From: an uncultured Gemmatimonadota bacterium
GTDB lineage: Bacteria > Gemmatimonadota > Gemmatimonadetes > Gemmatimonadales > Gemmatimonadaceae
NCBI GenBank assembly: GCA_902825965.1
Contig: CADEDA010000026.1
Coordinates: forward strand, 1 to 35,154
Length of the DNA stretch: 35,154 nucleotides
Direction: 5' to 3'
Position numbers and translations under genes: made by a program. The notes beneath the pieces were generated by a model that saw only the letters and a program-made list of their open reading frames with translations, searched no databases and was not told where the DNA came from. Below, in pieces: positions 6,248 through 20,897 of this stretch (its first letter is position 1; each line of letters begins with the position of its first letter).

Positions 6248-6870
6248 TGGAGGGGCCGCGCGCGCCCCTCTCGTCGGTGGAGGCGAAGCTCTACCGCTAC
6301 CTGCTCGACTACCTCGCCGAGCACACGTTCCAGCCCAGTGTACGTGAGATCGCGCGCCACTTCCGCATCCCGTCCACCAAGACCGTGACGGACCTGCTCG
6401 CCGTGCTCGAGCGCAAGGGCTACATCCGGCGCACCGCGGGGCGCTCGCGCGGCGTGGTGCTGATCGGCTTTGCCGGCAGTGGCGGGACGATGCCGGTGCC
6501 CGTGGTACGACTCGGCCCCGATCGCCGCTTCCAGGAGGAGGAGCAGCTCACGCTGGACCGCAGCCTCGTGCCGAGCGAGGAGGCCTTCCTCGTGCGCGCC
6601 CTCATCGAGGACGCACCGGCGCACGGCGTGAAGGAGGGTGACCTGTTGATGGTGCACCCCGGCGCGCGGGCCGAGGAGGACGCGCCGGTGGTGGTGCGCG
6701 TGGGCGGTGCGGTGCTGGTGCGCGCGCTCGAGCGGCGCGGCACGCTGCTGCAGTTGCTCGCACCCCGGCCGGGTGGGGAGACGATCGAGTTGGGGGCGAC
6801 GGATGACTTCGAGATCCTGGGGCCGTTGGCGGGGGTGCTGAGGATCACGCGACCGATGACGCGGGGCTAG
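6247..6870 (+). CDS. LexA-like repressor lacking the self-cleavage residues
   Basis: A 207-residue protein with LexA architecture. An N-terminal winged helix (about residues 10-70, with QPSVREIARHF as recognition region and LERKGYIRR before the wing) is followed by an S24-type domain with EGDLLMVHP and a LexA-like C-terminal end (ILGPLAGVLRI). Compared from memory with E. coli LexA, the scissile Ala-Gly region reads LGPDR. Ser119 corresponds to Asp122 and Lys156 to Arg159. All three requirements for RecA-stimulated autoproteolysis therefore seem absent. It is probably a DNA-binding regulator whose C-terminal domain serves only for dimerisation or ligand sensing. It is coupled to gltX by one overlapping base. 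A standard LexA is probably encoded elsewhere. Confidence 0.8.
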   Translation: MEGPRAPLSSVEAKLYRYLLDYLAEHTFQPSVREIARHFRIPSTKTVTDLLAVLERKGYIRRTAGRSRGVVLIGFAGSGGTMPVPVVRLGPDRRFQEEEQLTLDRSLVPSEEAFLVRALIEDAPAHGVKEGDLLMVHPGARAEEDAPVVVRVGGAVLVRALERRGTLLQLLAPRPGGETIELGATDDFEILGPLAGVLRITRPMTRG

Positions 6871-6871
6871 G

Positions 6872-6888
6872 CGCGCGCGAAGCGCGCG
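6872..6888. terminator. Possible bidirectional terminator hairpin
   Basis: CGCGCGC-GAA-GCGCGCG forms a perfect 7-bp stem with a triloop, two bases after the LexA-like stop and 20 bp before the end of the converging lipoprotein gene. There is no T-run, so termination is inferred from position and stem only. Confidence 0.35.
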
Positions 6889-6908
6889 GCCAACCGCCAC
6901 CACTCCCG

Positions 6909-7361
6909 TTAGGGCACCGCGGCGCGAATCCGGCGATAGAGCACCTCGCGTTGCTGGCGAGGTCGCAAGGCGACGCCGCCCTGAACGATCTCGTACCACC
7001 AGCGGAGCGCGACCGCAGCGCAGTTCTGTCCGGCCGGACACTCCCACAGTAGGCCGATCGAATCTCCCTCGATTCGATACGTGTACGTCTCCTGAACGAC
7101 CTCAGGAGTCGTGTCGTTCCCCGCGAGTCGCCAGCGCTCGACCCACACCCTTCGCGACGCACTGCGATCCGCGTTGAGGGTCAGGGTATCAGCCAGCACG
7201 CGCACAGCGAGCGAGTCGGACACCACCGTTGGCATCGGCGCGACAAGCGCGAACTCGCCTGCGAGGTCGCGCGGGGCGAGCGGCTCTGTGCATGCGGCGC
7301 CGAGAGCGACGACAAGGATGGTCAGCGCGCGTGCGACGTTGCGGAGACAATTCGTCACCAT
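6909..7361 (-). CDS. Hypothetical lipoprotein
   Basis: A 150-residue protein. The N-terminus is Arg-containing and then hydrophobic (ALTILVVALGAAC), ending in a lipobox with the lipid-acceptor Cys at residue 24, so it should be a cell-envelope lipoprotein. The rest has alternating beta-type segments with a TYTYRIEGDSIGLLWEC stretch, as in small beta-sheet lipoproteins that cluster in Gemmatimonadota genomes. The mature part holds two more cysteines (WECPAGQNC). I recognise no family. ATG 7361 is preceded by CGGAG. It converges with the LexA-like gene and has no operon partner. Confidence 0.7.
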   Translation of the reverse strand: MVTNCLRNVARALTILVVALGAACTEPLAPRDLAGEFALVAPMPTVVSDSLAVRVLADTLTLNADRSASRRVWVERWRLAGNDTTPEVVQETYTYRIEGDSIGLLWECPAGQNCAAVALRWWYEIVQGGVALRPRQQREVLYRRIRAAVP

Positions 7362-7596
7362 CGACTCCGGTTCTTGGCGTGGTGCGGGGAGACTTCTCCG
7401 GTCGCGCCACCGTCAGGTTGCGCCGTGGTCGGTCGACTAGATACGGGAAGGCCATCGGTAACCACCCGTCGTCAGGCGACGATCAACAAATTCGCACGGC
7501 GATGACACGTTCGCATCACCCAATAGCTGCGGTTACCCCCGCGAGCCCGCCGAAGCGCCGAGCTCCCTCGACGGCCCACTCGCGCCATGCGCCTCG

Positions 7597-10500
7597 TCAC
7601 CGCTGACCGGTCTCGTGCGCCTGCCGAAGCACGACCCGCCGCACGTTGTTCGATCGCTCACGGTCGATTCGACGGATCCAAGGATCGATCTCCACCGACC
7701 CCGGCATAGCAGACAGCGCCATGGACAGACTCGCGCCGCGGCGGGACGCCACCACGCTGCCCCGATGCAGGACTGAGTCTGCGCCATCGCGCACCGCGAC
7801 GTCGAACCGCTGCCCTTCGGCGGGCTCGTCACGCTCGCCGCCATCCGTGAGCCGCACCCGCACGGCATGGAACTCCGCCCGAAGTAGGTATCCGTCAGGA
7901 CGCGGCTCCACCCATGCCGAGTCCACCCGCAGGTCGTACAGCACCCGCTCGGTGAACCACTCGTCCACCAGCGCGCGATCGCCTTCCGTGACCGCCTCTG
8001 ACCGCAGCAGCGCGTGCAACTGCGGCGCCGTCGCTGCGCCGTGTGGTCCTCCCTCCGTCGCCACGAGTGTGCGAAGCGCACGCTCGACGGCGGAGTCGCC
8101 CAGCGCACCGCGCAGCGCGTGCATGGCCACAGCACCCTTGCCGTAGTAGAGATAGTCCTGGCCGGACGACTCAACGAGCGTCGGCTCCGGTTCGGCGTCC
8201 CACACGCGCCCGGAGAGGTAGCGGTCGTGGTCGTACGCGATGAGCTGCGGGAGTGCGGCGGCACCTCGTGTGTGCTCGACCGCCAACTGCTCCGAGTACT
8301 TGGCGAGCGTCTCCACGATCGTCGTGGCGCCCCGTACCTCGAGCGGGCTCACGGCGTAGCCCCACCATTGATGTGCCACCTCGTGCGCGACGCGCCGGGT
8401 GAGGAGATCCACGTCGTCGACGCGGGCGTCGGTGAGCACGCCTCGACCCTCGTTGAACATGATCATGCCGCTCAGGGCGAATCCGGCGAAGGGCCAGCGA
8501 CCGGGGACCTCGATGAGTCGTAGGTTCTTGTGCGGGTACCGGCCGAAGCGGGCGCTGAAGAGGCGCAGCGACGCCGTTGCCGCGTCCACGAAGCGTTCGG
8601 CATTGCGCCCGTGGTCCGGGTGGTGCCAGAACTCCACGAGCACGCCGTCCGCGCTGTCGCGCCGTACCGCGTACTCTGCCGAAGTGAACCCGAAACGGGC
8701 CGGCATGCGGTCGTCCACCCGGTACTCGAAGTAGCTGCGGTCCGCTGCCTTCCACGACCGGACCAGCGCACCGGGACCGAGGGCGGTCTGCCCGGACGTG
8801 GTGGACAGCGTGGCCCGCAGGGTGAGCCACGCATCCGACTGCGCCTCGGCACGAGCGACGCGCGTGAGGGAGTCGATGGCCGCGTGGGGCGACAGCCCTG
8901 CCGACCCGGGTGGGAGGCCGCGCCGGGTGCGCTCGCGCGACTCACCCAATTCGTACGAAGCGCGATAGCCGAACGACGGCATCGCCACGAGCATCGTGAC
9001 GTAACTGCCGTTGGATGACACATCAGGGTTGTAGCCGTCGGCGCGAATACCGTCCGACGCGATGCTGAACGAGTACTCGATGGTGGTGCTGTCTCCCGGC
9101 AGCAACGGCGACCCGAACGCGAAGGCCCGCACGCCGAAGCGCGGATCGTGATGCACCTGCGCTCCTTCGCGTACCGCGACGCGCACGTCGCGCGCTTCGC
9201 GTCGGAAGGTGATCCACACGGTGTCGATGGCCGAGGACGTGCGGTTGCGCACCGAGAGCGCGCCGCGGATGTCAGCGCGCCGCGCCCTCGGGGTGAAGTC
9301 GACCGCGATATCCACGTGGGACACCGAAGGCTGTGGTGTGCCGGACAACCGACGGTACGCACGCTCGTAGTCCACGCGCCACGCGACACTCGCGTCGCTG
9401 CTTTCCCAGGCTTGCCGCACGTTGGTCTGGTAGAAGACCGCGCCGCCTGTGGCCACGGCGAGCCCGCCGGCCACGACCATCATGCGCCGGGCCGGTGCAC
9501 CGCCGCGAAGCAGTGCGTCCATACGGCCACCTCCCGCCGGGCGCCGGCCTCGAGGCCACACCGCCCAGGCCATCGCGGTGAGCAGCAGCGCCACGGTCGT
9601 CCAGTACAGCATGAACGCGGCGAAGCTCGCAGCCGCCGCCCCGTAGCCGTCGAACTCCGAGAACGACAGCTCGGGTGCCGACGCGAAGCGCAGCAATGGG
9701 TGTTCCACTCCGACGAGCGAACCCGCCGCCGCCAGTGCGATGAGCAGCACGGAGAGCAGCATGCCGACCCAACGGTTCCCCGAGAGCACCTGCACGGCTA
9801 CTACCAGAAGCGCCGTGAGTGCCAATGGGTACCCGACGTACCAGAACTGCGACCCATACACCCACGGATCGATCGGCAGGCCGTCGCCCACTAGCTGTAC
9901 CGCCGCCGCCACGAGGAGTCCCAGGGCGAGGAGGGCCGTGGGCACGAGCACAAGTGCGAGCAACTTCGAGAGAACGAAGGCGCCGTTCGAGGCAGGCGTG
10001 GCGTCCACGAGGCCATCGATGCGGACGGCTCGTTCCCGCCACACGAGCTCCGCGCCGAAGTACACCAGCGCGAGCAGCGCGAACAGACGGAGTGGGATCG
10101 CGCCGACCATCTCTCCACTGCTGGCCAGTATCCGTGTGCCATACTCGGCGTTCAAGAGGCGCGTGTACGTCTCCACCGCCGTGATGAACACGAACAACAG
10201 CAGCAGTGCCTGGACGACGCGCGCCCCGAACAGCTGCTTGAATTCCAGCCGGACGCTCGACCCAACGGCTCGAAGCAGGTGCCCGCGCGATGCGCCCGTG
10301 GGCATGACCGGTGCATACGGGAGGGTCGGTGCAGCTGCGGCTGCCACCGGTGCGTCCGGTCGAGGGCGATTGCGGCGCGCGCCCGCCCCGAGCACGAGGT
10401 GGCGCGTGGCCATCACGATGGTGAGCGCGGCGACCACCAGTACACTCAGTCGATTGTACAGATAGTGCCCGGTCAGGGACACGAGTCTCAGGTTGCGATC

Positions 10501-11193
10501 GTCGAGCGTCCAGTAGCGGGACTGCTCGAACACCGCTGACAGCCCGAACGGATCCATCAGCGCGGCGCGACCGAGCCCCTCCGCCGTGACGGGCGTGCTG
10601 TTGGCCATGAGCGGCGAGTCGCCAAGCATCGCCGCGGTCATGTAGAGCGCGAAGATCGCCACGCCGCCGACGTACGTGGCGAGCGAGCTGCGCGTGCGCC
10701 AGCCCACCGCACACAGCAGCGCCGACACGAGCAGCAGGTTGGGCAGGATGAGTGTGCACAGCGCCTGTGCGTACGGAGCGATGCGGATCGCTCCGAGGGT
10801 GTCCGGCTCGAGTGGCAAGATGAGCGGTGCGAGGAACAGCACGCCGATGGCGAGCGACATCGCCAGCAGGCCGGCCAGCACGACGCCGAGATAGCGCGTG
10901 GCCACGTAGACCGCCCGGGACACCGGTCGCGAGAAGATCAGCTCGCGCATGTTGTACTCGTCGTCGCGCAGGACGCCGCTCGCCGCGAAGAGCGTCTGCG
11001 AGAAGAGCAGCCACAGCGACAGCAACCCACTCGCGCGCATCACGGCGTATGGGGAGTTCACGTGCGCCGACTCGGCGCCGTAGCCCGTTTGCACCAGCAT
11101 GAGTGCCAGACCGCACACCGTCAGCGTGACCAGGGCGAACGGGATGCGCCGCGTGTGGTAGCGCAGCTCGAAGTTCACGAGTTGCGTGAACAT
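7597..11193 (-). CDS. ABC-2 permease fused to M1-family metallopeptidase
   Basis: A 1198-residue two-part protein. The N-terminal half carries a first block of about six membrane helices (residues 15-265), a second block (about 310-560) starting after the juxtamembrane segment FKQLFGARVVQALLLLF, and one more helix near 573-590. This resembles duplicated ABC-2 permeases. The second half is an M1 (aminopeptidase N-like) domain, with the zinc motif HEVAH at 937-941 and a third ligand Glu at about 961 (VETLAKYSE). A downstream YYGKGAVAMHALR segment matches the M1 region around the catalytic Tyr. The peptidase part should lie outside the membrane. Its ATPase partner ends one base upstream. The substrate is unknown; export plus processing or degradation of peptides is an inference. 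Confidence 0.9.
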   Translation of the reverse strand: MFTQLVNFELRYHTRRIPFALVTLTVCGLALMLVQTGYGAESAHVNSPYAVMRASGLLSLWLLFSQTLFAASGVLRDDEYNMRELIFSRPVSRAVYVATRYLGVVLAGLLAMSLAIGVLFLAPLILPLEPDTLGAIRIAPYAQALCTLILPNLLLVSALLCAVGWRTRSSLATYVGGVAIFALYMTAAMLGDSPLMANSTPVTAEGLGRAALMDPFGLSAVFEQSRYWTLDDRNLRLVSLTGHYLYNRLSVLVVAALTIVMATRHLVLGAGARRNRPRPDAPVAAAAAPTLPYAPVMPTGASRGHLLRAVGSSVRLEFKQLFGARVVQALLLLFVFITAVETYTRLLNAEYGTRILASSGEMVGAIPLRLFALLALVYFGAELVWRERAVRIDGLVDATPASNGAFVLSKLLALVLVPTALLALGLLVAAAVQLVGDGLPIDPWVYGSQFWYVGYPLALTALLVVAVQVLSGNRWVGMLLSVLLIALAAAGSLVGVEHPLLRFASAPELSFSEFDGYGAAAASFAAFMLYWTTVALLLTAMAWAVWPRGRRPAGGGRMDALLRGGAPARRMMVVAGGLAVATGGAVFYQTNVRQAWESSDASVAWRVDYERAYRRLSGTPQPSVSHVDIAVDFTPRARRADIRGALSVRNRTSSAIDTVWITFRREARDVRVAVREGAQVHHDPRFGVRAFAFGSPLLPGDSTTIEYSFSIASDGIRADGYNPDVSSNGSYVTMLVAMPSFGYRASYELGESRERTRRGLPPGSAGLSPHAAIDSLTRVARAEAQSDAWLTLRATLSTTSGQTALGPGALVRSWKAADRSYFEYRVDDRMPARFGFTSAEYAVRRDSADGVLVEFWHHPDHGRNAERFVDAATASLRLFSARFGRYPHKNLRLIEVPGRWPFAGFALSGMIMFNEGRGVLTDARVDDVDLLTRRVAHEVAHQWWGYAVSPLEVRGATTIVETLAKYSEQLAVEHTRGAAALPQLIAYDHDRYLSGRVWDAEPEPTLVESSGQDYLYYGKGAVAMHALRGALGDSAVERALRTLVATEGGPHGAATAPQLHALLRSEAVTEGDRALVDEWFTERVLYDLRVDSAWVEPRPDGYLLRAEFHAVRVRLTDGGERDEPAEGQRFDVAVRDGADSVLHRGSVVASRRGASLSMALSAMPGSVEIDPWIRRIDRERSNNVRRVVLRQAHETGQR

Positions 11194-11194
11194 G

Positions 11195-12097
11195 TCAGGA
11201 CGTCGCGCCTGCGGCGGGACGCTCGGCGCCGGCCGACGTGAGCGCGCGGAAGTACACGTCTTCCAGCGTCGGTGACGTCGGCGCGAAGTCCTTGTCGGGC
11301 ATGGAGTCGGACAGCACCCGGATGCGCGAGCGCCCGGCGTGCAGTTGCGACGAGAGCACGCGATGCTGGCGCGACTGCGCGGCGAGCGCGTGGCGATCGA
11401 CGGTGCGGGTCCACAGCTGTCCCTCGAGTCCGGCCGCGAGGTCGTCCGGCACTCCCTGGCACACCACGCGACCGTCGGCCATGATGGCCATGCGTGTGCA
11501 GATCTGGCGGACGTCTTCCACGATGTGCGTGGAGAGGATCACGACCATCTCGTCACCGAGTTCGCTGAGCAAGTTGTAGAAGCGGCCGCGCTCGGCCGGA
11601 TCGAGCCCCGCCGTCGGCTCATCGACGATGACCAGTGTCGGGTTCCCTAACAGCGCCTGGGCAATGCCGAAGCGTTGCCGCATCCCGCCCGAGAATCCGC
11701 TGACCGCCCGCGTGCGATGATCCCAGAGATTGACCTGCACGAGCAGCGCGTCCACCTGTTCTCGCCGGCTGCGTCGGTCGGTCAGTCCCTTGAGCAGGGC
11801 CAGGTGGTCGAGCAGTTCGCGCGCCGACAGCCCGGGGTAGACACCGAAGTCCTGTGGGAGGTAGCCCAGCCGCCGACGATGCGCCGAGACGTCGTCGAAG
11901 ATGGAGAGGCCGTCGAAGCGCACCGTGCCGGCATCGGGACGCTGCAGCGTGGCGAGCGTGCGCATCAGCGTTGACTTGCCCGCGCCGTTCGGGCCCAGCA
12001 GACCGAACAGGCCGTTGCCGATGGACAAGGTGACGCCCTGCAGGGCGCGCACTCCGTTGTCGTACTGAATGGAGACTGCTTCGATCTCGAGTTTCAT
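11195..12097 (-). CDS. ABC transporter ATP-binding protein
   Basis: A 300-residue ATPase of the ABC-2/drug-exporter class. Walker A is GPNGAGKST (35-43), the Q-loop Gln is in LPQDFG (82), the signature FSGGMRQR is at 135-142, and Walker B is LVIVDEP (Asp159, Glu160). The H-loop follows in LSTHIVEDV. A C-terminal extension of about 80 residues follows, as in exporter ATPases. Start ATG 12097 places the first beta strand normally; an upstream GTG-type extension is Pro/Arg-rich and unlikely. Only one base separates its stop from the permease/peptidase start, so the two form one transporter and are translationally coupled. The LysR gene diverges upstream. Confidence 0.95.
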   Translation of the reverse strand: MKLEIEAVSIQYDNGVRALQGVTLSIGNGLFGLLGPNGAGKSTLMRTLATLQRPDAGTVRFDGLSIFDDVSAHRRRLGYLPQDFGVYPGLSARELLDHLALLKGLTDRRSRREQVDALLVQVNLWDHRTRAVSGFSGGMRQRFGIAQALLGNPTLVIVDEPTAGLDPAERGRFYNLLSELGDEMVVILSTHIVEDVRQICTRMAIMADGRVVCQGVPDDLAAGLEGQLWTRTVDRHALAAQSRQHRVLSSQLHAGRSRIRVLSDSMPDKDFAPTSPTLEDVYFRALTSAGAERPAAGATS

Positions 12098-12206
12098 GGC
12101 GAGGTCACCGTGCGATGGGAATAGGCGAGGCGGCGCGACGAGCGGTTCGGTGGCTCGTACGCCGATGGGCACATGTAGTTTCAGGTGACGATTGCTAATG
12201 TTTGCC

Positions 12207-12221
12207 TTAAGTTGTGCTTAA
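12207..12221. promoter_or_regulatory. LysR-type operator-like palindrome (T-N11-A)
   Basis: TTAAG-TTGTG-CTTAA is a perfect 5-bp dyad with a 5-bp spacer. It fits the T-N11-A rule for LysR-type binding sites. It touches the LysR start codon and lies in the 123-bp gap shared with the divergent ABC operon. This position suits autorepression and control of the transporter. Confidence 0.5.
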
Positions 12222-13126
12222 TGCTGACATCATCTGACTTTCGATTCTTCCTCGTTCTGGCGCGGTCCGAGTCGCTTGCGGCGGCGGCGCGCGAGCTCGA
12301 CGTGACGCCATCTGCGGTGACGCAGCGACTGCAAGAGCTGGAGCATCGCGTGGGCGTGCGGTTGGTCGTGCGGAGTGGTCGCCGACTGCTGCTCACCGAC
12401 GAAGGCGAGCTGCTGGCAGACCGCGGCCGAGACATCACCGACGAGATCGCGGAGTTGAGCGAGACGTTGGTGGCCCGGCGCGGCGAGGTCGCCGGACACC
12501 TGCGCGTCATCGCGCCGCTCGGCTTCGGACGTCGCTACGTGGCACCGGTGGCCGCGGCATTCTTGGCGGAGCATCCGGCGGTGACACTCGACCTGACGCT
12601 GTCCGATCGCCTCGGCTGGTTTGCCGACACGTCGTGGGATGTGGCCGTGCACATCGGCGAGACCCGGCCCGCGGGATTGGCGGCTCAGACGCTCGCACCG
12701 AACCGTCGTCTGCTGTGCGCGTCACCGGCATTCGTCGAGCGTTACGGATCTCCGGCGTCCCCGACGGCGCTCCGTGAGTTCCGCTGCATCGCGCTGCGCG
12801 AGAACGACGAAGACGTGACGATGTGGCGGTTCACCAATGCCGCGGGCGAGACGTCGCATGTGCGCATCGATCCCGAGCTCGCGAGCAACGACGGCGACGT
12901 CGTCCGCGAATGGGCGATCGGGGGACACGGCGTGGTCGTTCGCTCGGAGTGGAGCGTCGCCGACGACGTGCGGGCAGGTAGACTGGTGCCGCTGCTGGAG
13001 GACTACGCACTCCCCTCGGCGGATGTGCTGGCGCTCATGGGACCGAACAAAGGACGCTCGGCGCGGACATCGCAGCTGGTCGCGGTGTTGCGCGACGCGC
13101 TCACGCCTACGCCCTGGCGTGCGTAG
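12221..13126 (+). CDS. LysR-family transcriptional regulator
   Basis: A 301-residue regulator. The N-terminal winged helix-turn-helix (SSDFRFFLVLARSESL, then AARELDVTPSAVTQRLQELE and the wing GRRLLLTDEGE) is classic LysR. It is followed by a linker helix and a periplasmic-binding-protein-like effector domain (HLRVIAPLGFGRRYVAPV onwards). The sequence resembles the DsdA/CrgA-like subgroup with a 'PxxFxxxHPxVxLDL' segment. ATG 12221 starts the protein five residues before the first helix, as usual; a GTG at 12185 would add 12 residues. It is divergent from the ABC/M1 operon, which is its most likely target. The inducer is unknown. Confidence 0.93.
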   Translation: MLTSSDFRFFLVLARSESLAAAARELDVTPSAVTQRLQELEHRVGVRLVVRSGRRLLLTDEGELLADRGRDITDEIAELSETLVARRGEVAGHLRVIAPLGFGRRYVAPVAAAFLAEHPAVTLDLTLSDRLGWFADTSWDVAVHIGETRPAGLAAQTLAPNRRLLCASPAFVERYGSPASPTALREFRCIALRENDEDVTMWRFTNAAGETSHVRIDPELASNDGDVVREWAIGGHGVVVRSEWSVADDVRAGRLVPLLEDYALPSADVLALMGPNKGRSARTSQLVAVLRDALTPTPWRA

Positions 13127-13231
13127 GCGGCCAGGCGCACGGTGACGGACTCGTGTCCACACTACGAAGGCTCGGCCAAAGAACACAACCTCCCACACTC
13201 ACGGCATCCCGAGGTGCAGCGCATCGCGCCG

Positions 13232-13544
13232 TCAGGGGAGCCCCACGTCCTCCTGAGACGACGGCGTCGGCGTGTGGTAGATTCCGCTCCCGCCGATGCC
13301 AAAGGCGAGCGCACGTTCTACAGGATCATTCTTCAAGATGATCTCACCGAGCTTCGCGTGCAGCGCCGTCGAGCCACTGCCCGCGCCACTGCCCGCGCCA
13401 CTGCCCGCGCCACTGACCGGTCTGGCAGGTGCGCAGCTCAACGCGCTTCGCGAGCTCGGCCAGCGTGGCATCGCCTTTGAGCGCGGCGAGTGCGACCTTG
13501 GCCTTGAAGGCCGAGGAGTGATCGCGACGCGGACGACGGGGCAA
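13232..13544 (-). pseudogene. IS3-family transposase OrfA remnant (frameshifted)
   Basis: On the minus strand, FKAKVALAALKGDATLAELA (about 13510-13450) is the OrfA helix-turn-helix of IS3 elements. It ends in a repeated GQWR run. The expected next part, LHAKLGEIILKNDPVERAL (about 13360-13305), resembles the OrfA leucine-zipper region but is in a different frame. The frame break falls at or near a 12-bp tandem expansion. No OrfB catalytic domain or clear terminal repeats are seen. This is a dead insertion-sequence fragment; it occupies most of the 713-bp gap between the LysR gene and the serine hydrolase. Confidence 0.75.
13374..13416. repeat. 12-bp tandem repeat inside the IS3 remnant
   Basis: Three full copies of CCACTGCCCGCG plus a partial fourth (CCACTG). 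On the minus strand they encode repeated Gly-Gln-Trp-Arg within what would have been the single QW segment of OrfA. The expansion probably arose by slippage in the decaying element. Confidence 0.9.
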
Positions 13545-13839
13545 GTGGGTTCCGGTGAAGTGAGCGGAACGTCGCTCAGGGAGCCCGGCTGTCTACAGCG
13601 CGTGCTGTCCGAAGAACCGGGGCCACTTCAATTCAGCGTGGGGCGAGGATGTCAGGCAACCTCGAAACGTAGGACTTGGACGCGGATGCTCCTGTCGCAC
13701 CTGGAGGCAAGGGACGGAAAGACGATGCCGCGGGATGGCGTTCTTCCAATCCGGAATCCCGCGACCATATCCTGCGTACGGGCATCCCACGGATCGGTCA
13801 CCTGATTGACCACCGACCCACTGAACTCTGGAGAGTGCA

Positions 13840-15345
13840 ATGCTGCCTCGTACCGCTCGTGTGCTGGTCGTCGCCATGATGCTGTGGGCGCAGCCCACCT
13901 TGGCGGGTCAGGGCGAGTCGCTCTACCACGAGGCCTTCCGGAAGCTGCATGAGGCCGGCCAGTTCAACGGCGCCGTCCTCATCACCAAGGGCGACACGGT
14001 CGTCCTCGATGCCCATTTCGGTGACGGCGACAAACTCGAGGGGACGCGGCTCACGACCAACTCCCTCTACCGCCTCGCCTCCGTCTCCAAGACCATCACC
14101 TCGGCGGCGGTGCTCTCGTTGGTCGACGCCCGCAAGCTCTCGCTCGACGATCCGGTGCAGAAGTTCCTGCCGGCGTTTCCCTATCCGGACATCAGGGTGC
14201 TGCACCTGCTACAGCACAGCAGCGGGTTGCCGGAATACATCTTCGGGGTGGGCGACTACTGGAAGGACCGCACGGCGATGATGACCAACCGTGACGTGGT
14301 CCACTGGCTCGTGGACACGAAGCCGGAACTGGCCTTCACCCCGGGCCAGAGCTGGGATTACTCCAACACCGGGTATGCCTTGCTGCCGCTGCTTATCGAG
14401 GCCGTCACCAAGGAGCGGTATGCGGTCTACCTCCGGCGCGCGGTCTTCGCGCCCGCCGGCATGCGGAGCAGCTACCACATCTCCGAGCTCGGGCCGGCGG
14501 AGCGGGCCCGGATGGCCCGGGGACACGGCTTCGACTACGGCGCAGGGGTGGATGTCCGGGTCGACCGGCATCCCGTGCTCGGTGCCGCATTCACGGCGGA
14601 CAGTATCTACGGTGCTGGCGATGTCTTCTCGACCGCACGCGACCTGCTCGCCTTCGATCGGGCCCTGAAGGCCGGCAAGCTCATCTCGCCCGCGCTGCAG
14701 GCCGCAGCGTACACCTCGCTGATGCTGCCCGAGGGACTTCCTGCGGGCTATGGACTCGGATGGCAGGTGGCGGAATCCGACTTCACCGGACGTATCATCC
14801 ATCATCACGGCCAAGGTGATGGGTACCGCACGCGGTACTATCGTTTCCTCGACCGAGGCATCACGATCGTCACCCTGCAGAATGCGCGGGAGAGGTACGC
14901 CGACGAGGCAGTGCGGATCGCCCAGCAGCTGGCCTTCAAGGGGGCCTACACGTTGCCGGGCGTTTCGCTGGCCGAGGCGCTGAGCCGAACAATGGTCAGT
15001 AAGGGGGTGGAGGCAGCCCTGTCGCAGGTGGCCGAGGTCGCCAAGGCGCCCGGGCAGTGGTCGGTCGTCAAGCGAGACCTGGACAACCTCGCCCTGACCC
15101 ACTGGTTCCGAGGCGATCGGCCACTCGCCATCAGGTTCTTCCGCAGCTACCTCGCTCTGGCGCCCGAAGAGCCCGGACCGTACGCCACGCTCGCCGAAGC
15201 ACTGGGCGACATGGGACGAGCGGAGGAGTCGCGGGCGGAGTATGCCAGAGCGCTGGAAGTCGCGAACAAGGATCCGCAGCGATGGGCGCGCGAGATCACG
15301 CAGATCAGGAAGGCGATGGGGGACAAGGAGGAGGCCTCGCCATGA
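13840..15345 (+). CDS. Exported beta-lactamase-fold serine hydrolase with C-terminal TPR-like repeats
   Basis: A 501-residue protein. The signal peptide (residues 1-22, ending TLA-GQG) directs it to the periplasm. The class C beta-lactamase/PBP-like domain has SxxK as SVSK (81-84), YxN as YSN (174-176) and a His-Gly motif near 321-326. This catalytic set also occurs in esterases, D-aminopeptidases and the LACTB family. About residues 385-490 form helical repeats of TPR type (FFRSYLALAPEEPGPYATLA, then EESRAEYARALEVA). This arrangement is common in 'serine hydrolase' family proteins that are not true beta-lactamases, so resistance should not be assumed. GGAG at 13830-13833 precedes ATG 13840. 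Confidence 0.92.
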   Translation: MLPRTARVLVVAMMLWAQPTLAGQGESLYHEAFRKLHEAGQFNGAVLITKGDTVVLDAHFGDGDKLEGTRLTTNSLYRLASVSKTITSAAVLSLVDARKLSLDDPVQKFLPAFPYPDIRVLHLLQHSSGLPEYIFGVGDYWKDRTAMMTNRDVVHWLVDTKPELAFTPGQSWDYSNTGYALLPLLIEAVTKERYAVYLRRAVFAPAGMRSSYHISELGPAERARMARGHGFDYGAGVDVRVDRHPVLGAAFTADSIYGAGDVFSTARDLLAFDRALKAGKLISPALQAAAYTSLMLPEGLPAGYGLGWQVAESDFTGRIIHHHGQGDGYRTRYYRFLDRGITIVTLQNARERYADEAVRIAQQLAFKGAYTLPGVSLAEALSRTMVSKGVEAALSQVAEVAKAPGQWSVVKRDLDNLALTHWFRGDRPLAIRFFRSYLALAPEEPGPYATLAEALGDMGRAEESRAEYARALEVANKDPQRWAREITQIRKAMGDKEEASP

Positions 15346-15575
15346 GCCACCCCAGGAAGCTCGGCGGCGAATAGGCGATGTGACTGGCGTCGTTGACTGC
15401 CATCTCGCTGGCGCTCTTGGTGGAGATGGCCCCGGCCCAGTCCGTGCTCACCCGACGCCTCGAGCGGGGTACGCACCCGGTCGCCGTCCCGCCCAGCGCC
15501 GCGGCCGAGTTCCTGTTCTCCTTACCGGGGACATAGGTAACCCTGCTCGTGTGGCACGTAACCGGGGAGGTTGCG

Positions 15576-16133
15576 ATGCCGTGGCAGGAGATTCGACCAA
15601 TGGACTAGAAGAAGAAGTTCGTTCGAGAGTACCGGCGCGGGCTGTACACGATGACGGAGCCGGCGGAGCGCTACGCCAACAGCCGGACGGCGGGCTACGC
15701 GCTTGTGCGACGGGTCGAGGAGCTCGGCGTGGCCGGCGCTGCTGCTCGCGGAAAAGCGCGCACACCCGGCGTGGGGCCCCGGGATGTTGCTGCACTGGCT
15801 CGAGCCGCGGCATCGCGCGATCCGGCACTGGCCGCCGTTCGTGACGCGGGCGCTCTGCGGGCTCTCGCATCTCACCGTGTGGTGGATGCGCCTCGGCGTT
15901 CCGTACTAGCGTTTCCATCCGGCGTCGCCACAGGAGAACGGGGTGCACGAGCGAATGCATCGGACCTTGACGCGCGAGGCGATCCGCCCGCCGCGCAAGT
16001 CTCCGTCGCGCATCCCACGACTCGCATACCCAGGGCACTAGACGGTGAAGCGCGTGACGACCGTCGGCACCTTCCGCTTCAAGACGAAGCTGCTCTTCAT
16101 CGCACACGCCCCGCGCGGCTCTCACATCGGGCT
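15576..16133 (+). pseudogene. IS481-family transposase remnant (stop, frameshifts, central deletion)
   Basis: The start reads MPWQEIRPMD, then an in-frame stop, then KKKFVREYRRGLYTMTEPAE, which is the N-terminal HTH of IS481 transposases. After a frameshift comes AHPAWGPGMLLHWLEPRH (from about 15755), the usual 'AHPxWGPKKLL' region. From 15910, in another frame, come FHPASPQENGVHERMHRTL and LAYPGH, a stop, and KRVTTVGTFRFKTKLLFIA. These are the C-terminal catalytic-Glu and tail segments. Most of the DDE core between them is missing. Homology stops around 16133, where the cassette array begins. The element is dead and strongly decayed. Confidence 0.85.
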
Positions 16134-16142
16134 GCGTGTTAT

Positions 16143-16586
16143 CTATCTCCCCGGCTGTTCACCCCGGTCGCGCGGGCCCGCGAGGAACTCGTGGACGCGT
16201 CCGGCGTCGAGGCCACGCGCGACGAACGGCTGGCGGGCGAGTGCATCCGGGCTGCCGAGCACGCCGAAGAGCAGATGCTCGCACGCGACCTGGTCGGTGC
16301 CCAGCGCGTGCGCCTCGACCATGGCGCGCTCGATGACAGCCTTCGCGGAGGGCGTGTACGGGATATCGAAGCGATCCTCGGGCGTGCGTCGGTCCGGCGC
16401 CAGCGACCGCTCGAGCTCGGCGGCCACGACGTCCGGTGGCGCGTCGGCAAGGAGGCGCGTGATAGCGGTCGGGGCTGTCCGCAACACGCCGAGCGCCAGG
16501 TGCGCGGGCCGGACGTGGTCGTGGTGCAGCCGATGCGCCTCGGAGCGAGCGGCGGCGAGCGCGAGCTTCAGGTCATCCGTGAACAT
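16143..16586 (-). CDS. Stand-alone Clp N-terminal-domain protein (cassette gene)
   Basis: A 147-residue protein consisting of two Clp N repeats. The first runs LKLALAAARSEAHRLHHDHV, then PAHLALGVL. The second runs YTPSAKAVIERAMVEAHALG, then ACEHLLFGVL. This is the substrate- and adaptor-binding domain of ClpA/ClpC with no AAA+ module. Such proteins may modulate or mimic Clp substrate docking; that is inference. ATG 16586 is preceded by GGAGG at ideal spacing. It is the last cassette gene: its start lies just after the R' core of the first attC-like site (minus strand). Its stop TAG directly adjoins an ATAAC sequence. Confidence 0.85.
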   Translation of the reverse strand: MFTDDLKLALAAARSEAHRLHHDHVRPAHLALGVLRTAPTAITRLLADAPPDVVAAELERSLAPDRRTPEDRFDIPYTPSAKAVIERAMVEAHALGTDQVACEHLLFGVLGSPDALARQPFVARGLDAGRVHEFLAGPRDRGEQPGR

Positions 16587-16611
16587 GGCGAGCCTCCGAA
16601 CGCGCGTGCAG

Positions 16612-16747
16612 GCATAACGTGTGCTTGTGCTGCGAGCGCTCCCATAAAATGCGGTTGTGGGGCCTCGGCAAACCCATATAGAAGATGAAGCCGAGGCCCC
16701 ACAACCGCTACCGCCCCCGCGCTCGTCGGCAGCAAGCGTCGTTAGGC
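16612..16747 (-). repeat. attC-like site 1
   Basis: Minus strand: the core GCCTAAC and end core GTTATGC flank a long imperfect palindrome. The central stem 16651-16669 with 16690-16708 is 19 perfect base pairs around a 20-nt loop. Outer segments GCTTGCTGCCGACGAGCG and CGCTCGCAGCA pair imperfectly with unpaired bases, as in attC sites. It follows the gene at 16786-18045. Confidence 0.82.
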
Positions 16748-16785
16748 CCCGACGCACGATGCCCGTGTGGCGTTGAGTCCCGACG

Positions 16786-18045
16786 CTACGGGATGCGCTC
16801 TGAGTCCAAGTCCGACTGAGTGCAGCTGCGTCCGTCAGTATTGTCATAGGTCCGCGCGGCGTTCACGCGAAGCGCGTTAAATCGCACGGTGACATATGAG
16901 TCTGCGCCGGGGCGCAGGCGAAACGGGACGGCGATGTCCTTATCGAGCACGATTCGTCTCGAGCCGCATTGGAACTCCTCCAACAGAACCTGAAGCCTTC
17001 CTGCGTGAGTCTTGTACGGAACTCCCCAGCCATCGGGCTGACTTCCGTGCTCGAAGCTCGATATCCATTTGTTCCGTGCGAGTCGGAAGCCATGACGACC
17101 GGTTAGGTAGCGTTGTCGCGCCTCATCCCAGACTCTAACGAATACGCGTCCAGCAACGGAGTCTGGCAGCGTGTCGCGTACTCGGACGCGCGGAGGAGGT
17201 GGCAGCGGAAGGTGTCCCGCATCCTGAGACTCGCGCACCATGCTGAAAGTCCCGTCCGCTCCACAGCAGTAGGCGCGTTGAATCCACGTCCCGTCGATCG
17301 TGTCACCGTGCAGACGCCCCGCAAGCGATAGGCCGCCGTGCGATATGCGCGGCACGAAGTCGATGTGTACGGAATCGCCGTGGAAGATCACGGCTTCCGT
17401 CTCGCGAGCGAAGAGCGAGTCGACGCTGCCAAACACTGTTGTTGATACATCGCTTGCGATCTGTGAGCCGAAGAACGGCGCGAGATCAACCCAATGCAGA
17501 CCGCTCACTGCCGAGACCTGATCGTCACGTGCGCCGCGCGCCTCAAAGGGACTGGGGTAAGTCCGGCTTAGCGCGACAACGCCGACGGCGGTACGCGCAG
17601 TCGGTTTCTGGTCGCTGCCCGCGGAGTCGAGAGTGAGCACGATGCGCCAGCGACCGTCGAGCACACAACATGGGAGCGGCGCTCGACGCAGTCGTACCAG
17701 CACTTGAGTCTCTTGAGGCGGATGCACCGTCGCCTGAATCGAAGTCTGCACGTAGCCGCGCTTTGCAACTCGAAGACTTTGCGTTCCCGCTGGCACGTGA
17801 GGAACGTCGAACCGCCCCGTGGAGTCGGTGTCTCCTCCCGTGAACTCACCGAATACAGAGGCATCTCTCACAGGGAGGCCGGTCGCGTCGTCAACGACCA
17901 CTCCAACCACGCTCGCGGTGGTGTCGCGCAAGGCCGCTTGGTGCGCAAAGATTCGGTCAAGCTCGCGATCTCTAGCAGATCGTGCGCATCCGACAAGCGG
18001 CATCGTCAGGACGAGCGCAATCAGCGCGTTGTTGAGTATTCGCAC
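16786..18045 (-). CDS. Lipoprotein with carboxypeptidase-regulatory-like domain (cassette gene)
   Basis: A 419-residue protein from GTG 18045, preceded by an AGGA-type Shine-Dalgarno. The signal peptide ends in a lipobox (ALVLTMPLVGC), so it should be anchored in the envelope. Residues about 40-110 form a carboxypeptidase-regulatory-like beta domain (VVGVVVDDATGLPVRDASVF, then TDSTGRFDVPHVPAG and RVAKRGY). The remainder, with CCVLDGRWRIVLTLDSAG and CCGADGTFSM segments and a Pro-rich linker, belongs to no family I recognise. It is unusually long for an integron cassette. GC content is a little lower than in the flanking genes, as expected of cassette genes. Function is unknown. Confidence 0.75.
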   Translation of the reverse strand: MRILNNALIALVLTMPLVGCARSARDRELDRIFAHQAALRDTTASVVGVVVDDATGLPVRDASVFGEFTGGDTDSTGRFDVPHVPAGTQSLRVAKRGYVQTSIQATVHPPQETQVLVRLRRAPLPCCVLDGRWRIVLTLDSAGSDQKPTARTAVGVVALSRTYPSPFEARGARDDQVSAVSGLHWVDLAPFFGSQIASDVSTTVFGSVDSLFARETEAVIFHGDSVHIDFVPRISHGGLSLAGRLHGDTIDGTWIQRAYCCGADGTFSMVRESQDAGHLPLPPPPRVRVRDTLPDSVAGRVFVRVWDEARQRYLTGRHGFRLARNKWISSFEHGSQPDGWGVPYKTHAGRLQVLLEEFQCGSRRIVLDKDIAVPFRLRPGADSYVTVRFNALRVNAARTYDNTDGRSCTQSDLDSERIP

Positions 18046-18065
18046 TCTCGGAGTCCTGGCCGTGG

Positions 18066-18200
18066 GCCTAACGTGTGCTTCTGCTGCGAGCGCTCCCATA
18101 AGATGCGGTTGTGGGGCCGCTGCAGACCATCTGTACAGTAGAGCAGCGGCCCCACAACCGCTACCGCAACCGCGCTCGTCGGCAGCAAGCGTCGTTATGC
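18066..18200 (-). repeat. attC-like site 2
   Basis: Minus strand: core GCATAAC, end core GTTAGGC. The central stem 18105-18123 with 18143-18161 is 19 perfect base pairs around a 19-nt loop. The apical part of the stem (CCGCTGC/GCAGCGG) differs from site 1 (CCTCGGC/GCCGAGG) but keeps full pairing. It follows the gene at 18195-18812, whose TAA stop lies in the core. Confidence 0.83.
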
Positions 18201-18812
18201 GCCGCGCGCCTCAGCCCTCACGCGGTCCGCCTTCGACGTCACCGCAAACGCTGGGCTCGGGATTGGAGGTAGCGCAGGATACTCGGCGGGCGTCCACTCC
18301 TCCGTGTGGTCGACGACACCGCCTTCGTTCTTCAGCGCGCGCACCGCTTCTACGAGCATCTGCAGTGCGAAGCCGGCGTTGACGCGCAGCTCCCACTCGA
18401 GTTGATCAGGAGTGCGCAGAGGTGACTTCTTCATCTGCGGAAGAGACTCGTAGCTTGCCATCAAATGATGGTAGCGGCGGTAGAACTCGGAAATGGGCTG
18501 AATGGAGGGTGCGGCGAAGAAGCGCACTTCGCCTGCTAGGTACGCGAAGTAGAGCGGTGTGCGTGAAGGCACATAGCGGCTCGGCTCATCATCATGGAAG
18601 ATCTCGTTCAGCTGCTGCTCCAGTATGCGCATGTCCTGTAGGAGTGCGCTCGCGACAGTGCTCCGATGCCGCGCGCGTTCGCGCGCTTCGTCAGCTGCTC
18701 GTTCGGCGCGCTCGCGCTGAGCCTTCCGCAAGTCAAAGATGTATGTACCGCCCACGCCAAGAGCAGCGCCAAGAACGGTCAGTGCAGCGCCAGCCAGGAC
18801 GCTATCGGCCAC
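18195..18812 (-). CDS. Membrane-anchored protein of unknown function (cassette gene)
   Basis: A 205-residue protein from GTG 18812, with AGGA seven bases upstream. One N-terminal membrane helix (VLAGAALTVLGAALGVGGTY) is followed by a highly charged helix rich in Arg/Glu/Ala (residues 28-50), likely a coiled coil. A mostly helical cytoplasmic domain follows, with PSRTPLYFAYLAGEVRFFA, RYHHLMASYESLP and ELRVNAGFALQMLVEAVRAL. This 'one helix plus coiled coil plus helical domain' plan is common among small bacterial proteins of unknown function, some linked to phage defence; no family was identified. The stop TAA lies inside the attC-like core, typical of cassette genes. Confidence 0.75.
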   Translation of the reverse strand: MADSVLAGAALTVLGAALGVGGTYIFDLRKAQRERAERAADEARERARHRSTVASALLQDMRILEQQLNEIFHDDEPSRYVPSRTPLYFAYLAGEVRFFAAPSIQPISEFYRRYHHLMASYESLPQMKKSPLRTPDQLEWELRVNAGFALQMLVEAVRALKNEGGVVDHTEEWTPAEYPALPPIPSPAFAVTSKADRVRAEARGA

Positions 18813-18857
18813 GTGTTTGTCCTAGTCCGGTGAAGGACGACGATGTCAGTTCAGTGC

Positions 18858-18994
18858 GCATAACGTATGCTTCTGCTGCAAGCGCTCCCATAAAATGCGG
18901 TTGTGGGGCCCCAGCAGACCGTAGGCCAAAGATGAGGCTGGGGCCCCACAACCGCTACCGCACCTGCGCTTGTCGGCAGCAAGCGTCGTTATAC
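18858..18994 (-). repeat. attC-like site 3
   Basis: Minus strand: core GTATAAC, end core GTTATGC. The central stem 18897-18915 with 18937-18955 is 19 perfect base pairs around a 21-nt loop; its apex (CCCCAGC/GCTGGGG) again differs with pairing kept. In the outer arms GACAAGCGC faces GCGCTTG, where site 2 has GACGAGCGC and GCGCTCG: a compensatory G-C to A-T change. It follows the gene at 18989-19471. Confidence 0.83.
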
Positions 18995-19471
18995 GGCCCC
19001 GCGCCGATCGCTGACAAACTGTTTCAGCACCCGCACGCCGCCGGGCGCGGCGGGCCACAGGAGGAGGTGGTACTCGTCGCTGCCCTCGATGCCGAGGTCG
19101 TCGACCGTCTGCAAGCCGGCCATGCAGACGCGGACGCGATAGTGCGCGGGGGCTATGGCGATGCGTGCGGCATCCGGGAAGTAATCCGTACAGCCGGCAA
19201 CCACGAGCCGTGGGCCCGAGACCGTGAGGTCACATTCCACCACGTGATCCCATTGCTTGAGATCGAGACCGGGGGCGCGGTCCTCGATGCGCACCATCAC
19301 TGGAACGTCGCGATTGCGAACCGTGCCCACGCCGACGACGCCTGGGGCGACCGCAAGCAGGCGCCGCGTGGCATCTGGGCCCCACGCGTCGGACAGGTCG
19401 CCGCTGATCGCCTCGTCTTGGACGTAGAACTGATGGTAGTCGGCGAAGAGTGTGAAGCGATGAGCTGTCAT
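18989..19471 (-). CDS. Hypothetical protein (first cassette gene)
   Basis: A 160-residue soluble protein (MTAHRFTLFADYHQFYVQDE...) with segments DLTVSGPRLVVAGCTDYFPD, YRVRVCMAGL and EYHLLLWPAAP. No signal peptide or membrane helix is seen. The sequence resembles a widely scattered 'competence protein ComJ-like' or unnamed soluble family only in general style; I do not assign a family. ATG 19471 lies seven bases after the GTTATAC core on the minus strand, so translation may depend on an upstream leader. The frame is open upstream as far as 19684, but that would read through the recombination core. The TAA stop is inside attC-like site 3. Confidence 0.7.
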   Translation of the reverse strand: MTAHRFTLFADYHQFYVQDEAISGDLSDAWGPDATRRLLAVAPGVVGVGTVRNRDVPVMVRIEDRAPGLDLKQWDHVVECDLTVSGPRLVVAGCTDYFPDAARIAIAPAHYRVRVCMAGLQTVDDLGIEGSDEYHLLLWPAAPGGVRVLKQFVSDRRGAV

Positions 19472-19477
19472 CGGTCC

Positions 19478-19484
19478 GTATAAC
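19478..19484 (-). other. Cassette-array boundary core (possible attI or attC end)
   Basis: The minus strand reads GTTATAC, complementary to the GTATAAC core of attC-like site 3, so this is the 5' junction of the first cassette. The sequence beyond it (19485 onwards) shares only TAACGTGT with the attC-like sites and forms no long palindrome. It is therefore a candidate attI half or the scar of a lost integron platform. Confidence 0.5.
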
Positions 19485-20006
19485 GTGTATTGGACCGACC
19501 TATCTAACACCCGTCCCACGCTGTTACACAGGTCTGTATATCCCAATGTCCAGCGCGTACCACCCCCCCGCAAGACGTCGCAAACCGCCACCCCGCCCCG
19601 CCTTACGGTCAGCGCCCCCGATAGACCGGTCAGCATAACCTCGTCCGACAAAGCCGCGAGGCCATCGCATGGCGATACCAGCACGAACGGCCAACAGGGC
19701 GTCCCGTGCTGGCCGTTACCGTTCCCCGCGACTCCTTCACCGCGCCACAGAGTCGAAGCGGTCCGCGCGCGCCGCGTCGCGCGAGCTGTGCCGCCGCCGA
19801 CGGCACCGCGCGATCCTCAGCGTCGAGAAGCCGCTCTCCGTCACCGCGTTGTCCCTCTCGTTGCCCGCGCGCCACGCCCTGCACGTCCACCGGCCGGACC
19901 CCACGGTGTTTTGCAGTGACGCCGAAGTTCGCGTCAGCTCCGCGGGCGTCTGCCACCTGCCCGGCACAACGTGTCCACACACCCACTCAGGCGTACCCGG
20001 GGTCTC
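19485..20006. other. 522-bp region with no recognisable gene; two interlocked inverted repeats
   Basis: Open frames here give compositionally skewed proteins with no family resemblance, and I call no gene. The region separates the cassette array from the end of the ten-gene operon, so it would hold any array promoter and the operon terminator. Two 8-bp inverted repeats compete: 19678-19685 with 19705-19712 (CCAGCACG/CGTGCTGG) and 19686-19693 with 19710-19717 (AACGGCCA/TGGCCGTT). They overlap by three bases, so both cannot form fully. Confidence 0.5.
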
Positions 20007-20897
20007 CTACTCCTCTCGATCCGGCGGCACCGTCCCCGCAGCCCGCGCCTCCGCCTCGCGCCGCTCCTTCTCCTTCCGCTCCCGCAGCGCCCGCACGGCC
20101 GAGTAGAAGTCATCGTCGCGCTGCCGCCGCTCGGCTTGCTCGATGATCTCCGAGCGGAACGAACTCAGCCGACGCGCGCGGTCCATCGCGGTCGGGTTGC
20201 CCTGCAGGTTGTTCATCGGCAGCAACGCCAGCAGCGCCGTCGGGATCGCGAAGTCGCCCAACCGGATGAACTTCTGGTCCACGCCGTACTTCTTGCCGCC
20301 GCGCGAGAACGTCCAGTCGCCCGGCGCACGGCCAGGCTCGGCGGCGAAGCGGCGCAGCGAGTCGAGGTACTCGGTGGTCGTCGCGTTGAGCAGGATCTGC
20401 AGCGAGTCCGCGCGCGTGAGCGGGATGATCGGCGCCTGCACCACGTCGGAGTTGTAGGTCCACAGCCGCGGATCGTTGAACGATGGACGCAGCCCCTGCG
20501 CCGGTCCCCCACCACCGATCAGCGGTCCGGTGCCTCCGGGTGCGGCGCGTTCGCTCGTGGGCGCCGCGGCCGGCACACCACTGGGCACCTCACTGGGCGC
20601 CACCACCGGCGGCGCCGACTCGGCCGCCGGATTGCCCGTCACCGGGCGGTCATCGCCGCCATCGCGCGGCGCTTCGCGGCTCGGGCCGGTGCTGGGCGGG
20701 ACCACCGTGATGTAGCTGACGCGGTCCGGCATCACGGGACGGCCGCGATCGTCGCGCAGCAGCTCGAACGCCACCGGCACCACGAAGCTCGGCACGACGA
20801 TGAACATCACCAACAACTGCAGGAAGAACGCCGCCACCGACGCCTGCGGGTCGCCGCGGCGCGTCGGAAGGAGACGGATCCTCCGGGGCTGCTTCAC
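20007..20897 (-). CDS. Pro-rich single-pass membrane protein of unknown function
   Basis: A 296-residue protein from GTG 20897. A basic N-terminus (RRIRLLPTRRGD) leads into one membrane helix (SVAAFFLQLLVMFIVVPSFV). A Pro/Ala/Gly-rich linker of about 90 residues (roughly 65-150) follows, then a C-terminal domain with DSLQILLNATTTEYLDSL and KKYGVDQKFIRLGDFAIPTA segments and a strongly charged final helix. The layout recalls TonB-like periplasm-spanning proteins, but no TonB motif is visible. Its GTG overlaps the FAH stop by four bases (GTGA), so it is translationally coupled as the last gene of the long operon. Function is unknown. Confidence 0.75.
   Translation of the reverse strand: MKQPRRIRLLPTRRGDPQASVAAFFLQLLVMFIVVPSFVVPVAFELLRDDRGRPVMPDRVSYITVVPPSTGPSREAPRDGGDDRPVTGNPAAESAPPVVAPSEVPSGVPAAAPTSERAAPGGTGPLIGGGGPAQGLRPSFNDPRLWTYNSDVVQAPIIPLTRADSLQILLNATTTEYLDSLRRFAAEPGRAPGDWTFSRGGKKYGVDQKFIRLGDFAIPTALLALLPMNNLQGNPTAMDRARRLSSFRSEIIEQAERRQRDDDFYSAVRALRERKEKERREAEARAAGTVPPDREE

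What the first reader, a model, noticed from the sequence alone, without database searches (positions are those of the whole stretch)
16134..19484. Integrase-less integron cassette array with three long, near-identical attC-like sites
Three 135-137 bp palindromic sites alternate with four same-strand genes. The junction cores obey the integron rule: the TTRRRY-side start of each complete cassette is complementary to the core that closes it (TTATAC/GTATAA, TTATGC/GCATAA, TTAGGC/GCCTAA). The sites resemble each other more than the unrelated genes between them, and two genes have their stop in the core. No integrase is within the window, so this is CALIN-like or the tail of a larger chromosomal integron. 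Cassette arrays in this kind of organism are little described.
Basis: partly seen in the sequence, partly recalled or inferred. Interest (0 to 1): 0.92.

Follow-up and report, generated by a model that had tools for sequence, protein, structure and literature searches.

The report
attI-headed integron array lacking its integrase
This is a genuine stretch of movable integron gene cassettes with its own entry site (attI) but no integrase beside it; the same genome encodes a single integron integrase elsewhere, and sister species show the same one-integrase, many-entry-sites layout, so arrays usually read as dead leftovers may still be used.

Summary
Three attC sites (18858-18994, 18066-18200, 16612-16747, minus strand) separate four same-strand genes. 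The complementary-core rule holds for all three closed cassettes. It is not a REP or MITE element. The window is one contig of a Gemmatimonadota MAG that carries one intact IntI on another contig and more than 20 further attC sites. The array is not the tail of a larger integron. It starts at its own attI-like site (cut at 19484), and 221 bp of that head recur (83%) before another intI-less array of the same genome. In the genus, the attI core YAAYMCACG^TTA occurs 17 times in six genomes, and 16 of these sit at integron platforms or array heads, with or without intI nearby. A single-contig genome, by exact size Pseudogemmatithrix spongiicola, has one intI and three attI-headed arrays (87 attC). 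In it and the window, 66 of 70 neighbouring core pairs are perfectly complementary, against at most 15 in shuffles. Two intI-less loci lie at the same chromosomal place in different species. Best reading: a satellite array, filled in trans by one IntI. Recombination was not tested. CALINs are known, one with its own attI; a genus-wide multi-attI arrangement was not found in the papers searched.

The parts
19484..19704 (-). attI-like head of the array (attI core at 19481-19492, cut G^TT at 19484)
   Evidence: CAATACACGTTA, identical at the intI-linked attI of contig C32; 221 bp ending at the cut are 83% identical to the head of the intI-less array on C4
18989..19471 (-). cassette 1 gene, 160 aa, no Pfam, NCBIfam or PADLOC match; stop lies in the attC core
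18858..18994 (-). attC closing cassette 1 (137 bp)
   Evidence: core GTATAAC complements the cassette start GTTATAC at 19484
18195..18812 (-). cassette 2 gene, 205 aa, no family match; stop lies in the attC core
18066..18200 (-). attC closing cassette 2 (135 bp)
   Evidence: GCATAAC complements GTTATGC
16786..18045 (-). cassette 3 gene, 419 aa, lipoprotein-like N-terminus, carboxypeptidase-regulatory-like domain
   Evidence: PF13620, E 2.6e-9; GTG start chosen by reading
16612..16747 (-). attC closing cassette 3 (136 bp)
   Evidence: GCCTAAC complements GTTAGGC; 92% identical to an attC of species G015
16143..16586 (-). cassette 4 gene, Clp_N-domain protein, 147 aa, without a recognisable closing attC
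   Evidence: PF02861, E 9.3e-9; no attC in full-model scan
15610..16137 (+). frame-shifted transposase remnant (IS481/IS3-like by reading) that ends where cassette 4's attC would begin
   Evidence: three-frame translation; family assigned by eye, not by a profile search
6871..20006 (.). 13.1 kb present here between lexA and the gene at 20007; in 8 other species of the genus these two are immediate convergent neighbours

Best explanation
The stretch is an integron cassette array of four genes, three of them closed by attC sites. It was built at a chromosomal attI site that has no integrase gene beside it. The genome's only recognisable IntI (contig C32) most likely supplies the enzyme in trans. 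Under the established integron mechanism IntI binds the folded attC bottom strand of a circular cassette and joins it to the G^TT of an attI. Here that attI can be the one next to intI or one of at least three further copies, this one included. Shown here: cassette boundaries and the core rule, structure-constrained attC sites, one intact intI in the genome, the same attI core at intI-linked and intI-less heads, and conserved positions of some intI-less heads in sister species. Inferred: that IntI acts on these sites in trans, that the head region carries a cassette promoter, and that the last cassette lost its attC when a transposase remnant arrived.
For: IntI on C32:1616-2641 aligns end to end with the solved V. 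cholerae integron integrase (2a3v; 272.7 bits) through the IntI-specific region and the C-terminal catalytic motifs. Its array obeys the same core rule. In P. spongiicola (G011) and the window, 66 of 70 neighbouring core pairs match 5/5, against 5% within a site, 6.8% at random and a maximum of 15 in 10,000 shuffles. The core rule points independently to the array start in 16 arrays, and 15 of these starts have the attI-like core upstream of the cut. YAAYMCACGTTA occurs 17 times in six genomes, 16 of them at integron platforms or array heads (G011 3/3, G004 5/5, G000 4/5, G009 2/2, G015 1/1, G010 1/1); the reversed control pattern occurs once. Heads of intI-less arrays within one genome share 185-252 bp (G004) or 221 bp (G000) up to the cut, while intI-linked heads share only 25-48 bp with intI-less ones. 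Orthologous intI-less loci: G004_D = G011_B, 4.7 kb upstream at 78%; G002_C13 = G011_C, 4.1 kb at 84%. intI and attC presence agree across 17 genomes (11/11 against 1/6, Fisher p = 0.001).
Against: No recombination, excision or strain-level cassette turnover was seen; each species is represented by one genome. attI function is inferred from position and sequence. G000 is a draft of 73 contigs, and several of its arrays end at contig ends. The array here is short and its last cassette lacks an attC, as expected of a decaying array. Heads of one G005 and two G010 arrays were not located by the core rule, and the C17 array start has a different upstream sequence.
Confidence: 0.78

Rival explanations
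1. Degraded integron: the array and attI are what is left of a second complete integron, or a duplicated one, whose intI was lost; it is now inert.
For: CALINs are generally proposed to be degraded integrons (PMC9024848). The array is short, its last attC is missing and a transposase remnant abuts it. Heads keep more than 150 bp of common upstream sequence, as a duplication would.
Against: No intI remnant was reported on the window contig by the whole-genome profile search. The intI-linked and intI-less heads of one genome share only the last 25-48 bp, so the intI-less heads are not simple copies of the intI platform. The attI core is kept at all heads found in G011 and G004 and at four heads in G000. 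Some intI-less loci are conserved between species. The core rule is intact in a large intI-less array, 27 attC in G011_B.
Confidence: 0.17
2. Off-target insertion: cassettes were inserted by IntI at a secondary genomic site (attG) with no attI.
For: Known as one proposed origin of CALINs (PMC8618304). The locus has no array in eight relatives.
Against: The site upstream of the first cassette is not arbitrary: CCAATACACG is identical to the intI-linked attI and lies within a 221-bp block shared with another array head.
Confidence: 0.03
3. The palindromes are REP, MITE or terminator-like dispersed repeats, not attC.
For: Long palindromes, many copies in the genome.
Against: Asymmetric ends that obey the cassette core rule, one orientation along each array, co-occurrence with intI across species, cassette bodies of about 0.6 kb between them.
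Confidence: 0.01

Closest known systems
[quoted passage not shown] IntegronFinder)
   Different: This and most sister arrays start at a recognisable attI shared with the intI-linked array; IntegronFinder does not detect attI outside class 1 (PMC9024848)
CALIN with its own attI in Shewanella prophage M16-3 (PMC9892861)
   Same: A complete integron and an intI-less array, each with the same Shewanella-type attI (end CTAATAAAATGTT, comparable with CTAATCCACGTT here)
   Different: A single prophage case; here up to five attI-headed platforms per chromosome in several species, some at orthologous loci
Sedentary chromosomal integrons / superintegrons of Vibrio and Xanthomonas
   Same: Long arrays of similar attC sites; Xanthomonas also has CALINs at conserved chromosomal loci (PMC12444791)
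   Different: The passages read describe the attI beside intI only; here intI is codirectional with the cassettes and several attI sites exist
Treponema integrons with intI transcribed towards attI (PMC3607928)
   Same: Same layout: intI upstream of attI and in cassette direction in 7 of 7 loci examined here
   Different: Other phylum; [quoted passage not shown]

Membership tests
integron cassette array | attC sites: imperfect palindromes with R''/R' cores and structure kept by compensation | tested here: met
integron cassette array | start of each cassette complementary to the core that closes it | tested here: met
   3 of 3 closed cassettes in the window; 66 of 70 pairs with the P. spongiicola arrays
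integron cassette array | IntI tyrosine recombinase with integron-specific domain in the genome | tested here: met
   TIGR02249 412.7 bits, cut-off 265; full-length match to 2a3v
integron cassette array | site-specific insertion and excision of circular cassettes | not testable with these tools
   needs a recombination assay or several isolates
complete integron | intI adjacent to attI and array | tested here: not met
   no intI on the contig; met on C32
CALIN | at least two attC sites without neighbouring intI | tested here: met
   three attC and no intI on the 35 kb contig
attI | conserved core at the insertion point G^TT directly before the first cassette | tested here: met
attI | IntI binds and recombines the site | not testable with these tools
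   no biochemical data
REP/MITE repeat | dispersed copies without cassette boundaries | tested here: not met

The most novel reading that the evidence does not exclude
In this genus the integron is a multi-locus network: one IntI serves up to five attI-headed arrays at separate, partly conserved chromosomal places. intI-less arrays are then working satellite platforms rather than leftovers, and attI itself, as a 150-250 bp head, has been copied to new loci such as the lexA region here.
Probability: 0.55. Interest if true: 0.78.

Novelty: new variant of a known kind. Interest (0 to 1): 0.64.

Why it matters
intI-less attC clusters are about as common as complete integrons in sequenced genomes (2961 against 2760 in PMC9024848) and are usually read as debris or off-target insertions. 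Here they can be recognised as attI-headed. That gives a simple test for whether a CALIN may be a live platform, and a system with an available cultured isolate in which insertion in trans at several attI sites can be measured. Large arrays (about 80 kb and 56 attC beside intI, 87 attC in all) in P. spongiicola are not mentioned in its description: the word integron does not occur in PMC11271474.

Tried and rejected
The Rfam search found only two tRNAs. First coordinates for IntI and cassette 3 were out of frame and were corrected. A search for a closing attC of cassette 4 with the full model found none; the weak likeness of GATAACACGC near 16137 to an attC start was judged chance-level. A common cassette promoter at the heads was looked for: GTGGTA-N17-TATACA here, TTGGTA-N17-TATACG on C4 and TTGGTG-N17-TATACA on C32 are suggestive, but no consensus spans species, so it is not claimed. 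PADLOC and NCBIfam gave no function for cassettes 1 and 2. No homologue of the four cassette proteins was found in other fetched arrays. Paper searches for 'multiple attI' gave nothing; a search for attI variants was swamped by the word attitude. The attI core in four other genera of the family was chance in three cases as far as seen and an array head in one.

Full report
What was checked. The three palindromes and the core relations are exactly as described. Sites lie at 18858-18994, 18066-18200 and 16612-16747 on the minus strand, 84-85% alike. They fold as single-stranded DNA far better than shuffles, and the plus strand, which is the attC bottom strand, folds slightly better than the top strand in all three. 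The bottom-strand folds show single-base bulges on one arm, as attC sites have. The long central stem varies by compensation between the three sites. On 13 sites of the same genome, compensatory cells number 73 against 26 in shuffles, and sliding the partners destroys the pairing.

Where the window lies. It is contig C26 (35,154 bp) of G000, a 4.07 Mb draft of 73 contigs, 95% complete. Its IntI is closest to that of a Gemmatimonadetes MAG (63%). A single-contig genome of the same genus, G011, is 3,257,781 bases long, exactly the size given for a strain of Pseudogemmatithrix spongiicola in PMC11271474. The genus name rests on that match of size.

The integrase. The genome holds one match to the integron integrase family over its cut-off (C32:1676-2620, 412.7 bits against 265). 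The protein (C32:1616-2641, minus strand) aligns end to end with the solved V. cholerae integron integrase, 2a3v. The other matches score far below the cut-off and are probably XerC/XerD relatives, since the same search also rings in all 14 control genomes below the cut-off. intI lies upstream of its attI and points the same way as the cassettes in 7 of 7 loci of the genus, the layout known from Treponema (PMC3607928).

attC sites elsewhere. A covariance model built from 13 sites of this genome finds more than 20 further sites in G000, many near contig ends. In the genus, 12 of 17 genomes have attC hits and 11 of 17 have intI. All 11 intI genomes have attC; only one of six without intI does (Fisher p = 0.001). 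G011 has 56 sites over 80 kb beside intI and two intI-less arrays of 27 and 4 sites. G004 has roughly 110 sites. Scores of the 13 training sites are high by construction, but the hits in other species are not.

The core rule. IntI exchange implies that the first bases of a cassette complement the core that closes the same cassette, and that the two cores flanking one attC belong to different cassettes. In the G011 arrays and the window, 66 of 70 neighbouring pairs match at all five variable positions. Cores within one site match in 5%, random pairs in 6.8%, and the best of 10,000 shuffles gave 15. This separates integron cassettes from any dispersed palindrome.

The head of the array. Using the core of the first attC as a probe, the start of the first cassette was located in 16 arrays. 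In 15 of them it lies right behind an attI-like core, (C/T)AA(T/C)(A/C)CACG^TTA; the exception is the C17 array of G000. The window's core, CAATACACGTTA at 19481-19492, is identical to the one beside intI on C32. Genome-wide, the pattern occurs 17 times in six genomes. Sixteen are at integron platforms or array heads: 3 of 3 in G011, 5 of 5 in G004, 4 of 5 in G000, 2 of 2 in G009, 1 of 1 in G015, 1 of 1 in G010. The reversed control pattern occurs once. The fifth G004 site was unknown before the pattern search and proved to head a one-cassette array with matching cores GTTAAGCG/CGCTTAAC. In another genus of the family, one of four pattern hits is likewise an intI-less head with matching cores GTTAGACC/GGTCTAAC. 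Two of the 16, beside intI in G009 and G010, have no attC close by or no closing core found.

Relations among heads. Within G004 three intI-less heads share 185-252 bp at 86-94% up to the cut. Within G000 the window and C4 heads share 221 bp at 83%. The intI-linked heads share only the last 25 bp (G004) or 48 bp (G011) with intI-less ones. The cut-proximal core is thus the common element, and the intI-less heads form their own families. Two intI-less heads occupy the same chromosomal position in two species each: G004_D and G011_B share 4.7 kb of upstream DNA at 78%, G002_C13 and G011_C 4.1 kb at 84%. The window's head is different: in eight other species lexA and the gene at 20007 are immediate neighbours, and 13.1 kb, the array included, sit between them here. 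The nearest relative, G016, has other genes there.

Contents. Cassettes 1 and 2 encode proteins without family matches, cassette 3 a lipoprotein-like protein with a carboxypeptidase-regulatory-like domain, cassette 4 a Clp_N-domain protein. Cassette 4 has no closing attC. A frame-shifted transposase remnant begins there; that it removed the attC is an inference.

Interpretation. The simplest account is that one IntI acts in trans on several attI sites, and that this array is one of its smaller stores. The main rival is decay of a second integron. The preserved attI cores, the intact core rule in a long intI-less array and conserved positions speak for use, or at least for recent use; the missing last attC speaks for local decay. 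Neither was tested by experiment. Prior work says that integrons typically have one attI close to the integrase (PMC9024848), that CALINs may arise by loss, off-target insertion or rearrangement (PMC8618304), that Xanthomonas CALINs sit at relatively conserved loci (PMC12444791), and that one Shewanella prophage has a CALIN with its own attI (PMC9892861). The genus-wide arrangement was not found in the papers searched, which are only open-access ones.

Noticed in passing
L142:114-1017, L145:18483-19385, L148:17691-18325 (species G004): Runs of attC sites spaced by about 269 bp with near-identical short bodies: tandem copies of a very short, possibly gene-less cassette.
   Followed up: no
window 13840-15345 and L159:12440-13873 (species G015): The same serine hydrolase (67% identity) lies just beyond the end of the array in both species, in opposite orientation relative to the array; an attC of that G015 array is 92% identical to the window's third attC.
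   Followed up: partly
window 6909-7361 (minus): The gene next to lexA has a 34% identical relative directly before the first attC of a G015 array (L159:118-525), so it may be a former cassette gene.
   Followed up: partly
L016:11515-11614 and L019:3444-3543 (G000 contigs C17 and C18): Nearly identical 100-bp palindromes with GTACAACTT ends, a MITE-like element unrelated to attC.
   Followed up: no
L014:1440-1610 (G000 contig C32): Short direct repeats (CTGCAGACC and similar) between the end of intI and attI.
   Followed up: no
L014:2700-3600 (G000 contig C32): A long low-complexity repeat coding region beside intI, with a similar stretch on contig C4 upstream of its array head.
   Followed up: no
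window 6250-6870: The insertion carrying the array lies directly downstream of lexA, the regulator that controls intI in other integrons; probably coincidence.
   Followed up: no
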